NCBI GenBank assembly: GCA_963924555.1
Contig: OZ004590.1
Location: 1,837,001-1,901,000 of the forward strand
DNA: 64,000 bases
Direction: 5' to 3'
Origin: Crambe crambe
Taxonomy: Eukaryota > Porifera > Demospongiae > Poecilosclerida > Crambeidae
Positions 44,756 to 50,700 of the stretch are shown piece after piece (the first letter of the stretch is position 1; each line of letters opens with the position of its first letter). The translations under genes and the position numbers were made by a program. The notes beneath the pieces were generated by a model. It was not told the origin of the DNA. It saw only the letters and a program-made list of their open reading frames with translations, and did not search any database.

Positions 44756-47700
44756 CTACTTCAGTGAGTATGCAACATTCTCTTCCATCTGGATTACAGG
44801 TGTGGTTTTATGGAGACTAACGTCTTCATACACTGGCATTGACTTTTCACAAGATCCTTCTTCAGCCCTGGGGCACTTCTTAATTTTATGCATGCAAATG
44901 TGGTGGAAAATCACACCAACAACACAACCAATAACTAAACCAATGATGAAAACAACTGCTGAAGCCAAAGAGATCTGAAATACTGTGGATGGAGGTCCAG
45001 AATCTTCGGTGGTAGTATATACAATTCCTATCAAATAAACATGAGAGCATAATAAGTTTGAGTTACCTCCCAAAAATATGCTGAGAAAACTATAGCTAGC
45101 CTGAATAGTTATTTTACAATATTAAATATTGGAAACTAGCTAGATAGAGATGCATGATGATAATTCAGGAGATCTATGTCTGCTGATTAAATTTAAGGTG
45201 ACCCAGAGAAAATCAATGTTTACTTTTAGAAGGGGATAATTGTCATTGCCCCGCTGCACATGCGCAGCAAGGGGTTAAGCATCACGCAGATATAGCCAAA
45301 AAATTTTGAAAACTTGCAATAACTACTAAAATACTTGACACTTATTGCTAGCATATTTCTAAAGTAAAAAATGTTTATTCTAAATAAAAAAGGCAAGTAG
45401 GGATGGCTAATGTGCACTGGGTCGACAATGTCATGTGTACGGGGCGGGGCATAGAAATGTCTGCCTCGTTGTAGGTTGAAAGCTAACAAGAAAATGACGT
45501 ATTATTTTTGAACATATCAAGTTAAAGCAGTCATTTCTGAGTAGATTGGTATAAGCATTTGAATGAACCATTTCTGAAATGATGATGATGATGATGATGA
45601 TGATGCTGATGTGATGATGATGAATAACCAGATGAAAACGGCGATTTTAGAAGTTGCTATAAAATGATACTGCTTTGTCTTCTGCTCTTCATACTTGAGT
45701 CCTAGCACATTGGAGGTGTTCTGTCTTCAAGTTATGAGTTGCTGACTGTAGGAGGGAAGTATTAGTTATGAAAGAAAGTATTAAGAATGGAGCATCCGTG
45801 CCATCCCTACTTAGAGAGTACTATCATACTCTCTGATACTTACAACATTTTCTTGAAACTATAATAAAGAATGCTCTCTGGCTTCACCTCCGAGGCTATT
45901 AGTTAATTCGATCCTAGTTTGCACGTGTACGTGCCTAGGCTAGTGCCCCCATGCTAATTATAGCGATTCCGGACGCGACGTGGGTGTGGCCAATTTTTCC
46001 CTGCCGGAAATCAATGTAAAAAATGGCTCCAAAAATCAGGGAGATAAACTGTTACCGCGCAAGATAGGAAGAATAATAATACCAGCACTATGCATATCAC
46101 CATGTTCCCCTTGTATCATAGAATGTGATTTTCATGGTTAATAGTATTTTAGTTGGAATTATGATACAGTTTGCTTCGCTATAATATTTAAATCTCGTTT
46201 TACTATTTAAAAATTTACTAATTTTTTTCCGTAACCTACATATTTAAAATTAGTGAGAAAAATTGACCAAGAAAATCTTCATAAAAATCTACTGTAACTA
46301 ACCTGGCGCCAGCGCACAAGCTCTGAGTAAGCTAGACAACAATAACCCACAAATTAACTATAATTTAAAAAGCGCGCATGCGTATTTCTCCTTTCACCCG
46401 CGAAATTCGAAATCTGCTTCGAGCTTCTGCTCTAAGTAAGTCTCTCAATAATACTAGAGATTTAGTGAATCAATTTGTAGGATGGATATATCTGATTCAT
46501 ATAAATATTGCAAAGAGAGTGACATTACTTCAAGTATGCTCCTTGGAGGAGAACCACTGCAAATAATACCCGACATTAAAAATGGTCTCGTTCTAGAGCT
46601 ATTTGCCATAAAGAAAATTAAAAAAGAATCAGTGTCCTGGTCTGATTTTATAAAATGGATAAAAACAATATCTGGGAATGAGGATCCAATATCTATCGCT
46701 GCAATTCAAAAATCAGTTACTAAATTGCAATCTAAAAAAACCCAACTACAAAAGAGTAAGTCAAAAAATGGGTGTCTTGTAATTAATTCGTTTCTGGAGT
46801 CACCTTATAAAATCCCTGGGAATGAACCAAGAAGATCTAGATCATCAACAGTTAATTATAAAGTACCCTGGCAATCTTTTTTCATGAAAGAGGTGATAGC
46901 CACTGTCAATAAAAGTCTAGCAGCAGAAAATGCTGCACTTAAAGAAAAGTGTACCGCTAAAGAGAACGAAATTGAGAAGTTTAAAAGGAAGCTTAGGAAA
47001 CGTTATAATGCCTGTAGAAAAATAAAAAGAAAATATTCAGCTGTTAATCATTTCAAAGATGATTTCTCCAAGCCAGATCGAATGAAACGACTAAGAGAAC
47101 AAATAAGGTATTATAAAACTAAGTGTGACTCTTTAACAATTCAATTAAAAGAACTTGAGTGTGAGGAATGTCAAACACTACAAACAAGCATTGAGCAGTT
47201 AAAAAGTGAAAAAAGAGAGCTGTTACACCTTAATTCTGAATATAGAGACACAATAAAAGAATTAAAATCAAGAAAAATTCAATTCTATAAAGATAATAAA
47301 TACACTGATACTTTACGAATTTGCATCATGGAGTTACTTTCATATAATGTAGGAATACTTAATGTTTCACCAATTATACAATCAGTCTTACACTTAGCAG
47401 GACTAGATTATGACAAACTTCCTGAACGGACAACTATTAACGAAATTCTTATTGAAAGTCGTTCACTAGCACATATGCAGTTAGCTGAAACTCTCACACA
47501 TGCATCCAACAGCACACTACATTCTGATGGCACCACCAAATTTGGTCATAAATACACAAGTTATCAAATGTCAACTACAGAAGGAGCACTAACCCTTGGT
47601 CTACAGGTGAGTCAAAACATTCCATTGTGTGCTTATGTTACAGTAATAACTTTGTAGGAAGTGACATCTGGAGCTGCTGAAACCACACTCCAGACGCTGC

Positions 47701-50700
47701 AGGATATACTTCATGAAATTGCAGAGTCAGCTGAGAAACAAGGCATCAGCACCAGTGCAGATAAGATCATTTCAAATGTAAAAAGTACGATGTCTGATCG
47801 AGCATCAACTCAGAAATCATTCAATACTTTACTGTCTGAATACAGAGCAGGCATATTACCAATAGTAATACAGGATTGGGATGATTTTATACCAGAAGAA
47901 AAACAGTCTATGTCCCAGATGCACAATTTTTTTTGTGGTATGCACCTAGTGGTTAATATGGCAGAGCATGCATCAGAATGTTTGAAATTGATTGAGAGGA
48001 ATTACCCTAATAATCCAAAATTTGCTTTCAATAATGATAGTGAATCTGGGACTCTTCGCTTAATTAGGACAACTTGTAAAGCATTTGAGAAAAGAGGAAA
48101 TGAAAAGAGTGGTTGTCCTTTGCAGTTCACTTCATACCTCAAGAGAAACGGGATAGCAAAAAACCCACTGATTCATTTCAGAGGTAACAGATTTAACATT
48201 ATATTTGCAAATGGTGCTCGTGTTTATAGTTTACATAATCACATCACCGATTTTCTCAAGAATGTGTGGGGGACACCTAATCACCTATTAAAAGCTGTAC
48301 TGGAAGATGCAACCAATGATAACTATATTGCTGGATGCAAAGCTTTGGGTTTAATTGACAAATTAATCACTGGTCCTCTTTGGAGAATTTTAGAGTCGGA
48401 TATTCATATACTTGACATCCCAGAGTACTACACTAAATTGAGAATCTTCTTCAAAGAGACCACAGCACAAAACATCAACAGTGTCATGATAGGAGAAAGA
48501 ATACCCTTCACTCCCGACTTAATAAAGCGTGATGAAATTTGGGAAACACTCAGTTCTCAGTCACACCATGATTCTTCAGTTGAATATATCCTCCTCTCTC
48601 TTTTCAAATCTTTTGAATTGCTATTGGAGCGAGTGTTAGCAGATCATCAACCAGTTATGAGTGCAGCTGCTGAAAATAAAGAAAAAGTAAAATCTGAAAC
48701 AACAACTGTGAAAACAACCAATACAATCAGTGAAAGAGATTTTGGAAAATTGGATAGGCTTATCAGAGAAAAACCAAATGCTTCCATACTAGCTCTGGAG
48801 GCACACATTTTATTTACTAATAATAAGACAACTAAATGGCTAGCTACGAAATCCTCTGATGAAAGGAGGATTATGTTTGAAGAGGCAAGAAAAAATGCCC
48901 CCCAACATCGCCAGCGATATCACGAACACCTCTCAAATATTGAAAAAGAACGAATCAAAGTCCAGAATAAAAAACAAAAAGAAAAAGAAGCGTCTGAGAG
49001 AAAACGGGTCCAAATGAAAGAAAAGATTACATCCGAGTTAACTGATTATGGACTTTGGATATCTCCAGCACAAGTGAAGTCCAAATTAAGTGCTATGAGG
49101 TCTGAGAAGCAAAAATGTACAGCACTTAAAGCCCAATTAAGGTTCAGGAAAACTGTATTGCAACAGCAGCCCACAGACGATTCTGTTTACAAGTTTTCAA
49201 GTAAAGAAAAAGGTCACTTTGATTCCCAATTACTTTGTGAAAATCTTTTGAAGTTAATAGAATATTCTCGATCAATTGAAGCTTCTGAATCAGCTACACC
49301 CGAGTCTATTCCCTCACTAAGTGGGAAATATATTGAACATAACTTTACGGAACCAGATGGAACCATTAAGCCATACAAAGGCAAAGTCATCTCCCAGGTA
49401 CCTGGTTTTCTTGACTGGTACAATGTAGTGTACACAGAAGAGCCTGGTATAGTATACACATTCAAGCTAAAAGAAGATTTTGATAATGGAGACTTGAAAA
49501 TTTTGTAGTTTAAGCCTTTTTAACTTTCTTTTTTATCGCACAACTCCACTTGTTTACATACTAATTTTTTATTTACTGTTTACCTAAACTCTTTACTCTT
49601 TCCTCTCCACAACAATCTTTGTTCGAAAGAAAAGCATTCAGTAGAAGCGAAGATAATGGGAATCAAAAAGGTCCAATCTAAATTGACCTTCGCACCCTAT
49701 TAGCCACATTTCCAATTATAAGAACGCAGAAATTTTTCCATTGATTGCATTCGGAAAATTCGATGTAAGATGAGTTAGAATGCATGAATTTTCACCGGAA
49801 AAAGACCATTCTGCTCAGAAAAAAAAGCTTAATTCAATAAGTAAGTGAGAAACGTCCAATAGTGAATTATAAAAAATGATCCGGAATCGCTACTAATTAT
49901 GCTTTAACCAGACACTTTACGGGTTTATTACAGCGGGACATTGACTCTATGAGTTCTAGTTTAACTGAATGACTGAACTATAATTATTATGTATAAGCAG
50001 TAATTATGCTAGCTAGCTAGCTACATGTAAAAGTATGTAAGATGGCTTTATTTTTAATTTGCATTTTCTCTCTCTCAAACTCAGGCTCTAGCTCTAGCAG
50101 CTAGAATCCTCATTTTTTGAGAATACTGTGTAGATGGTGGCATGGCCAGGTATAATCATTGCAGGTTCACCTGTGATTCTATTGATCAGGAGTCCAAAAA
50201 GACTGCCGTGTAGTACATGTTTATGCTATATATAGTTGTAATTAGACTGGCTATATCTATAATGATTCACAATGTTACTTTGATATGATTATGATATGTG
50301 GACAGTGAGCTCAAGATCTAGTGCATGCATAAATTATGTGCTATATAAATACTTACTAATTGTTGTAGTAAAACCAGCAGTAGTTTCTGCAGTAGTAGCA
50401 GTAGCAGTAGTCTGTGCACAAAAGTTAGAACTGGATACTAAATATTTGATAAGCAAAAAGTTTTTAAAAGGATTTCCAGCTATTATAGAATTTTGATATA
50501 CATACCATTGAGCAAATCTGTAGCCACTGAACCATTGCCAGCAGGATTCACTGGAGTGATGGTGTAGATAATGCATAGGTCTGTATCCAGTGGAATAGTG
50601 ACACTTGTAGTATCAATGCCACATTGAGAATAATACAATGTATTGTTGAGATAGTCCATCACATCCACACAGTAAGTGATACCAGGGTCACCAATAGTGA

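What the first reader, a model, noticed from the sequence alone, without database searches (positions are those of the whole stretch)
45961..49892. Possibly unclassified DNA transposon: 13-bp TIR, 7-bp TSD, intron-containing transposase
Perfect TAGCGATTCCGGA TIRs, perfect CTAATTA duplication and an uninterrupted 991-aa spliced frame indicate recent activity. D349, D422 and C468-x2-H471 fit the DD-CxxH core of RNase H-fold transposases, but the 7-bp duplication and TAGCG terminus do not fit the common superfamilies I can recall. Relatives of the protein are known to me only as uncharacterised animal proteins.
Basis: partly seen in the sequence, partly recalled or inferred. Interest (0 to 1): 0.88.

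Follow-up and report, generated by a model that had tools for sequence, protein, structure and literature searches.

The report
Unclassified jumping gene with histone-reader domain
A recently active cut-and-paste DNA transposon, in what is probably an animal genome, fits no transposon group that could be tested and encodes a transposase ending in a domain that resembles the histone-reading protein Spindlin, which suggests a way for a jumping gene to sense chromatin.

Summary
Window 45961-49892 is a 3932-bp DNA transposon with perfect 13-bp TIRs, a perfect 7-bp TSD and an intact spliced 991-aa gene. In the same genome 8 of 8 copies with two exact TIRs have perfect 7-bp TSDs; so do 25 MITEs among 50 single-TIR loci and 7 of 8 testable copies of four related families. 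Paralogous empty sites exist. Six families, down to 19% identity, share D349, D422, C468xxH471 and E734, a DDE-type core. No Pfam transposase model matched, although Pfam's hAT model fires at 150 places in this genome. In F1 and F3 all four positions of Spindlin's H3K4me3 cage are aromatic. 26 of 32 Spindlin-repeat matches in this genome lie at these transposases; none is tandem. Best reading: a hAT/P-like cut-and-paste transposon outside the superfamilies testable here, with a probable histone reader. Repbase and Dfam could not be searched; the RNase H fold is modelled only at low confidence.

The parts
45961..49892 (+). Complete autonomous transposon (family F1), 3932 bp
   Evidence: TIRs, TSD and intact gene; five further near-full-length copies at 99-100% DNA identity
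45954..45960 (.). Left target-site duplication CTAATTA
   Evidence: 8 of 8 two-TIR F1 copies have a perfect 7-bp TSD
49893..49899 (.). Right target-site duplication CTAATTA
   Evidence: joined flanks match an uninterrupted paralogous site C13:1763988-1764217 at 81% across the junction
45961..45973 (+). Left 13-bp terminal inverted repeat TAGCGATTCCGGA
49880..49892 (-). Right 13-bp terminal inverted repeat, exact reverse complement
46482..47606 (+). Transposase exon 1 (residues 1-375): helical N-terminal part, predicted coiled coil (about residues 140-270), first catalytic Asp
   Evidence: SMC-like coiled-coil match at residues 144-271; long helix 143-260 in the model of the relative L057
47607..47657 (+). 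51-bp predicted intron GTGAGT...TTGTAG; F2 appears to have an intron at the same place, F3-F7 read through it
47658..49508 (+). Transposase exon 2 (residues 376-991 and stop)
47526..47528 (+). Codon of D349 (first catalytic Asp; its counterpart is in predicted strand 1 of the L057 core model)
   Evidence: invariant in 6 of 6 families aligned; model; coordinate
47796..47798 (+). Codon of D422 (second catalytic Asp)
   Evidence: invariant in 6 of 6 families aligned; coordinate
47934..47945 (+). C468-x2-H471 motif
   Evidence: invariant in 6 of 6 families aligned; coordinates
48732..48734 (+). Codon of E734 (proposed catalytic Glu; SERDF in F1; its counterpart lies at the start of a predicted helix after the helical insertion)
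   Evidence: invariant in 6 of 6 families aligned
49317..49505 (+). C-terminal Spindlin-type Tudor domain (residues 929-991); cage positions F938, Y948, Y967, Y975
   Evidence: PF02513 E 7e-6; family profile against Spindlin-1 E 7e-24; model of the L057 counterpart

Best explanation
A recently active, autonomous cut-and-paste DNA transposon that represents a superfamily-level lineage not matched by any transposase family testable here. Shown: precise insertion with 7-bp duplication, TIRs that start TAGNG in nearly all ends read, non-autonomous MITEs that share the left TIR, several families with open full-length frames, an invariant D-D-CxxH-E set, and a C-terminal Spindlin-type Tudor domain. 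Inferred: the transposase is an RNase H-fold DDE enzyme with a large helical insertion before the Glu, as in hAT and P; it cuts both ends and joins them to staggered positions 7 bp apart at sites resembling CTWNWAG; the coiled coil multimerises it; the Tudor domain binds a methylated lysine on a histone tail (most likely H3K4me3) and tethers the complex to chromatin, biasing where it integrates or where its protein is held.
For: TSD: 8 of 8 two-TIR F1 copies; all 25 MITEs with a recognised right end, TSD lengths 4-12 scanned; F2 2 of 2; F3 3 of 4; F4 1 of 1 and F5 1 of 1 testable. Empty sites. Recent: 9-24 substitutions per copy. DDE set: 61 invariant columns over six families include D349, D422, C468, H471, E734; F5 finds F3 at E 8.6e-35. 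Constraint: F1-F2 pN 0.23 against pS 0.84 over 423 codons. No transposase match in Pfam, NCBIfam or PDB, with the hAT control. Reader domain; cage residues of Spindlin1 Tudor 2 from passages of PMC7864079.
Against: The RNase H core is modelled at low confidence (core model mean pLDDT 63.8, pTM 0.54; strand 4 not predicted), and a fold search of that model could not be run. The fold search of the full-length model gave no match at E <= 0.001 and no transposase in the 50 rows shown of 456. HMMER against Pfam is less sensitive than profile-profile comparison with Repbase, which was not available. The TAGNG end, the target pattern, F1's length and its short TIR recall hAT. One F3 copy (L056) has no TSD. 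F3 and F5 have no PF02513 match at E <= 1 (only weak PTM/DIR17 Tudor matches, E 0.008 and 0.039, below cut-off) and F4's is below cut-off. F4-F7 have L or C in place of the fourth cage residue (read). No binding or integration data exist.
Confidence: 0.72

Rival explanations
1. A divergent branch of the hAT superfamily that makes 7-bp instead of 8-bp duplications, lost the BED finger and gained a coiled coil and a Tudor domain.
For: Ends TAGCG, TAGTG and TAGGG fit the YARNG end rule of hAT (recalled); F1's 3.9 kb and 13-bp TIR lie within the 2.5-5 kb and 10-25 bp given for hAT (PMC3942097, passages); D-D-CxxH-E order with a helical insertion, and an E-R-x-F motif in group A; T at target position 2 and A at the second last resembles the Hermes target (recalled); the Repbase authors use hAT families annotated with a 7-bp TSD as an example query (PMC4455052, passages).
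Against: No hAT dimerisation domain in the proteins scanned (F1; F2-F5; nine core pieces including F6 and F7), although the same Pfam model scores 150 places in this genome, none in 19 element regions compared by eye; no BED finger; the standard TSD is 8 bp; group B has TIRs of hundreds of bp.
Confidence: 0.22
2. A member of Dada, Kolobok or P, the other C/DxxH superfamilies besides MuDR.
For: Same D-D-C/DxxH-E signature; Dada has 6-7-bp TSDs (PMC3706591, search-listed abstract recalled in part and passages, TSD example GCGTTCA); D-to-D spacing of 73 equals that of the P element (D230, D303; PMC8230255, passages).
Against: Dada has no TIRs, has CCCC and CCHC fingers, and its copies with definable termini sit in small-RNA genes, whereas here there are TIRs and no Rfam or tRNA hit in 19 loci. 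Kolobok duplicates TTAA, with 3-5 bp in KolobokP. No Pfam family of P or any other transposase matched.
Confidence: 0.07
3. The transposon is as described, but the Tudor domain is not a histone reader: it is a structural or protein-protein module without a targeting role.
For: Only F1 and F3 keep all four aromatic positions; F4-F7 have L or C at the fourth (my count). The fold alone does not fix the ligand: Spindlin1's first repeat takes other marks than its second (passages of PMC7864079).
Against: In the six families aligned the positions of F141, W151 and Y170 stay aromatic and Y967 is invariant; mutating Y170 and F141 costs Spindlin1 about 2800- and 130-fold in affinity.
Confidence: 0.35
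4. No mobile element: a duplicated host gene or an assembly effect.
For: None found.
Against: Same ends and exact, different 7-bp TSDs on eight large contigs; paralogous empty sites.
Confidence: 0.01

Closest known systems
hAT superfamily
   Same: Cut-and-paste, D-D-CxxH-E order with a large helical insertion, TAGNG-type ends (end rule recalled), F1's length and short TIR
   Different: 7-bp TSD, no PF05699 dimerisation domain or BED finger found, coiled coil, C-terminal Spindlin domain, long TIRs in group B
P superfamily (P element, THAP9)
   Same: D-D-[C/D]xxH-E signature, D-to-D spacing 73, insertion before the Glu
   Different: No THAP or P-element Pfam match
Dada superfamily
   Same: C/DxxH signature, 6-7-bp TSD
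   Different: Dada lacks TIRs, has two zinc fingers, inserts into snRNA and tRNA genes
Kolobok superfamily
   Same: C/DxxH signature
   Different: Kolobok: TTAA 4-bp TSD, RR..YY ends
Spindlin (SPIN1-4) Tudor repeat 2
   Same: 31% identical over 64 residues; F938, Y948, Y967, Y975, D982, D987 correspond to F141, W151, Y170, Y177, D184, D189
   Different: Single repeat on a transposase instead of three tandem repeats in a chromatin protein
Gypsy-10_Ec32 of Ectocarpus (PMC12477816, passages)
   Same: Transposable element whose protein ends in a Tudor domain
   Different: LTR retrotransposon of a brown alga; its authors call it, to their knowledge, the first reported TE with a Tudor domain

Membership tests
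DDE cut-and-paste DNA transposons | TIRs and fixed-length TSD | tested here: met
DDE cut-and-paste DNA transposons | Invariant D, D, E | tested here: met
   six families
DDE cut-and-paste DNA transposons | RNase H fold | tested here: inconclusive
   beta-beta-beta-alpha start with D1 in strand 1 and E in a helix, low pLDDT, strand 4 absent; fold search of the core not run
DDE cut-and-paste DNA transposons | Strand cleavage and joining activity | not testable with these tools
   needs biochemistry
hAT | 8-bp TSD | tested here: not met
   7 bp; standard; 7-bp hAT annotations may exist in Repbase
hAT | C-terminal dimerisation domain PF05699 | tested here: not met
   control
hAT | N-terminal BED zinc finger | tested here: not met
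   no such Pfam match for F1 or F2-F5; N-termini of F6 and F7 not scanned with Pfam
hAT | Ends fit YARNG (recalled) | tested here: met
   TAGCG, TAGTG, TAGGG; one F2 end reads TAGTA
hAT | 2.5-5 kb long, TIR 10-25 bp | tested here: met
   met by F1; group B has far longer TIRs
Dada | No TIR | tested here: not met
   perfect TIRs
Dada | Insertion in snRNA or tRNA genes | tested here: not met
   0 Rfam and 0 tRNA hits in 19 loci
Dada | 6-7-bp TSD | tested here: met
   7 bp
Kolobok | TTAA 4-bp TSD | tested here: not met
P | Sequence match to P-type transposases | tested here: not met
   no such Pfam match
IS3EU/GingerRoot | 6-bp TSD with TA..TA ends | tested here: not met
   TSD 7 bp, though the ends do read TA..TA; definition from passages of PMC10045372
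Zisupton/KDZ, Novosib and other Repbase superfamilies | Homology to curated Repbase transposases | not testable with these tools
   Repbase and Dfam not available
Spindlin-type Tudor domain | Significant match to PF02513 or Spindlin structures | tested here: met
   F1 over Pfam cut-off; six-family profile against Spindlin-1; F3 and F5 alone do not match PF02513
Spindlin-type Tudor domain | Four-aromatic methyl-lysine cage | tested here: met
   met in F1 and F3; three of four positions in F4-F7 (my count)
Spindlin-type Tudor domain | Binding of H3K4me3 | not testable with these tools
   needs binding assay

The most novel reading that the evidence does not exclude
This is a new transposase superfamily whose enzyme reads methylated histone H3 to choose where it integrates, and its single C-terminal domain is the source from which the three-repeat Spindlin chromatin readers of animals arose by domestication and triplication. 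In this genome Spindlin-type repeats were found only singly, 26 of 32 of them at these transposases, and no three-repeat host gene was detected.
Probability: 0.13. Interest if true: 0.92.

Novelty: new variant of a known kind. Interest (0 to 1): 0.68.

Why it matters
If true, a DNA transposon carries its own histone-mark reader, as chromodomain retrotransposons do, so chromatin-guided integration by a DDE transposase becomes testable with a young, apparently intact element and natural MITEs that share its left TIR. It would also add a superfamily-level lineage to the C/DxxH clan and give the Spindlin readers a possible origin in a selfish element, or show a capture in the other direction.

Tried and rejected
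Ideas rejected: Dada, Kolobok and IS3EU (features not met); insertion into small-RNA genes (no Rfam or tRNA hit in the window, or in 19 loci); subterminal repeats as binding sites (only scattered, mostly A/T-rich 9-mers); a palindromic target as a strong claim (mean 1.15 matches against 0.77 for flank 7-mers, but the maximum of 2000 controls was 1.21). The column headed '8th base equal' compares the wrong register and is ignored.

Searches that led nowhere: close relatives in viral contigs and in prokaryote genomes: none. Literature: a transposase with a Spindlin domain (listing of 15 of 65 papers), a new 7-bp-TSD superfamily (listing of 20 of 23, no paper), the TIR letters (6 papers), Tudor readers in transposons (8 papers), Spindlin in invertebrates (listing of 12 of 360): nothing describing this element in those listings. 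The full-length model had pTM 0.38; its fold search had no match at E <= 0.001 and returned Spindlins, SGF29 and an unrelated transporter, but no transposase, in the 50 rows shown of 456. The 14 control genomes gave no match and are not named, so they say little.

25 of the 50 fetched gave no recognisable right end with an exact TSD; 20 of these were read over only about 440 bp inward, the other 5 over about 4.4 kb (two of the 5, L051 and L052, carry F1's right end). The 25 counted MITEs were recognised with the help of an exact duplication of any length from 5 to 12, so the count speaks for its length, not for how often a TSD is present. L059, L064 and L065 run off the fetched stretch before the right end, so their TSDs are untested. 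F2 was left out of the six-family count; L043 is frameshifted, and L044's interrupted match suggests the same. The Pfam scan covered F2-F5; F6 and F7 were scanned as core pieces only.
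Full report
What is there. The element is as described: 3932 bp at 45961-49892, perfect 13-bp TIRs, CTAATTA on both sides. The gene has one predicted 51-bp intron and encodes 991 aa. Relatives that read through the same point support the splice; F2 appears to have an intron at the same place. The host genome (G000, 143 Mb, 119 contigs, unnamed) is probably an animal; the window holds an Ig-like frame, with one of five Ig models just over its cut-off. I did not identify it further.

Mobility. The exact TIR 13-mer occurs 81 times in the genome, its reversed control 0 times. 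Eight pairs bound an element, on eight contigs. All 8 have a perfect 7-bp TSD, all different: CTTATAC, CTAACGA, ATACATA, CTTGTAG, CTAATTA, TTGTAAG, ATATAAT, CTATAAG (as read on the contig strand). Of the 65 remaining single-TIR places I fetched 50. In 25 a MITE of 349-370 bp ends in a near copy of the TIR (TCCGGAATCACTA in 23 of 25) with an exact duplication; scanned over 4-12 bp, all 25 were 7 bp. The other 25 of 50 gave no recognisable right end. Over the 33 sites, read in the orientation of the element, the target reads C23 T25 W30 N W28 A22 G15, i.e. CTWNWAG. Not all 33 are surely independent: L103 and L104 share their context, and so do L035 and L086 over 13 bp.

Empty sites. The window's joined flanks match C13:1763988-1764217 at 81% over query 68-284, across the junction at 150, with shorter matches elsewhere. 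The joined flanks of L036 match L010 at 86% with one exact CTAACGA at the junction; those of L035 match L046 at 81%, with gaps, and CTTATAA at the junction. Five other near-full-length copies differ from the window copy by 9-24 substitutions. L037 and L038 encode 991 aa with 1 and 3 changes, L040 and L041 have open frames of 990 and 992 aa, L035 is interrupted after 268 aa. So the family moved recently; present activity is inferred, not shown.

A larger lineage. Exon 2 finds 84 matches in the genome at E <= 0.001 (71 of 109 candidates scored, so a lower bound). Six further families were read. F2 (L043, L044): TIR TAGTRATACCGG, TSDs CTTAAAA and CTATAAA. F3 (L055, L056 and two more copies): TAGCGATTTCCGG, TSDs CTATACA, CTTAAAG, ACAGTTT; L056 has none. 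F4 (L057): TAGYGATATCAGATA, TSD CTGTAGT. F5 (L058): TIRs of hundreds of bp starting TAGGG, TSD GCTTTGG, read by inspection because the automatic scan ranked internal repeats first. F6 and F7 (L064, L065): long inverted repeats, right ends beyond the fetched stretch. F3-F7 have single uninterrupted frames of 963-1021 aa as used. Group A (F1, F3, F4) and group B (F5-F7) are 19-24% identical; homology is firm, since F5 finds F3 at E 8.6e-35.

Catalytic core. Across F1, F3, F4, F5, F6 and F7, 61 columns are invariant, among them D349, D422, C468, H471 and E734. E734, in SERDF, is the natural third acid, 312 residues after D422, with a mostly helical stretch between. Order and insertion match hAT (recalled) and P (D230, D303, D339xxH, E531; passages of PMC8230255). 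The AlphaFold core model of L057 has three strands with D1 in the first, a helix, and the Glu at the start of a helix, but at low confidence; strand 4 is absent. The fold search on this model was not possible. The RNase H fold is therefore inferred from the sequence pattern.

Not a tested superfamily. Pfam gives no transposase match for F1 (E up to 10), F2-F5 (E up to 1) or nine core pieces of F1-F7 (E up to 10). NCBIfam gives none for F1, F3, F4, F5 and F6 (E up to 0.1). PDB by profile gives none (60 of 70 rows seen; 4 of 4). Pfam's hAT domain scores 150 places in the same genome (of 280 candidates), none in 19 element regions compared by eye. Passages of PMC3706591 (Dada), PMC9587614 (Kolobok), PMC10045372 (IS3EU) and PMC3942097 (hAT) give defining features, at least one of which is not met for each. 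For hAT some are met: F1's length, its short TIR and, by recall, the YARNG end. Repbase and Dfam were not available, so 'unclassified' means unmatched here.

The C-terminal domain. The last 65 residues of F1 match PF02513 Spin/Ssty (E 7e-6, just above Pfam's cut-off). F4 matches below the cut-off (1.6e-4); F3 and F5 do not match it at E <= 1 but match a PTM/DIR17-like Tudor model weakly, below its cut-off (E 0.008 and 0.039). The six-family profile finds Spindlin-1 at E 7e-24; the next non-Spindlin chain is at 2.4e-6. The predicted domain of L057 lies within 1.1 A of Spindlin1 over 65 columns (probability 1.00, E 0.003 for the whole query). The best repeat is the second, whose H3K4me3 cage is F141, W151, Y170, Y177 (passages of PMC7864079). 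In F1 these correspond to F938, Y948, Y967, Y975, and D184 and D189 to D982 and D987 (numbering, pairing). In the other families the first three positions stay aromatic; the fourth is Y in F3, L in F4 and C in F5-F7. This last mapping is my count from the invariant tyrosine; the alignment sets F1's Y975 one column from F3's Y because F1 has one extra residue there. A methyl-lysine reader is therefore likely in F1 and F3 and open in the rest.

Spindlin repeats in this genome. PF02513 finds 15 places, all at transposase matches (compared by eye). A human Spindlin-1 repeat finds 32, of which 26 lie within 300 bp of the transposase matches entered (40 of the 84 rows), and no two start within 3 kb of each other. 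Five of the six others share one score and a 114-aa frame and are unexplained. No three-repeat host Spindlin was detected, though a gene split into short exons could be missed. Whether animal Spindlins came from the transposon or the transposon captured a repeat is open.

Mechanism. Shown by sequence: precise insertion with 7-bp duplication, MITEs that share the left TIR and have the same 7-bp duplication, conserved acids, reader-like domain. Inferred: transposase binds the TIRs, multimerises through the coiled coil, cuts both ends, joins them 7 bp apart, and uses the Tudor domain to hold the complex on methylated H3. hAT-like hairpins on the donor flank are possible and untested.

Novelty. 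The authors of the Ectocarpus study (passages of PMC12477816) call a Gypsy element, to their knowledge, the first reported TE with a Tudor domain. I found no paper on a DNA transposase with a Spindlin domain (65 papers with at least two of three terms, 15 seen as a listing). I file it as a new variant of a known kind: a cut-and-paste DDE transposon, probably a new superfamily, with a new accessory domain.

Noticed in passing
window 31247-34892 (+): Remains of a retroelement: reverse transcriptase domain (PF00078 E 2e-13) in 32583-34250 and a CCCH-type finger in 31943-32470.
   Followed up: no
window 19572-20063 (-): Open frame with weak immunoglobulin-like matches, one of five models just over its cut-off.
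   Followed up: no
G000 C3:3411105, C19:1018935, C13:2924367, C9:2999741, C3:5174359: Five Spindlin-repeat matches with one score and 114-aa frames, not at the transposase matches: a repeated unit with a lone Spindlin-like domain, unexplained.
   Followed up: partly
G000 C13:1824889-1826709, about 10 kb left of the window: Another family of the same lineage (42% identity, 694-aa frame, PF02513 match).
   Followed up: no
L042: F1 copy of 7476 bp interrupted by two stretches of about 1.1 and 2.5 kb, probably nested insertions.
   Followed up: no
L101 and L102 (C14:3169600 and C14:3185481): Two MITE ends in opposite orientation 15.9 kb apart with the same 12-bp flank, suggesting an inverted duplication.
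   Followed up: no
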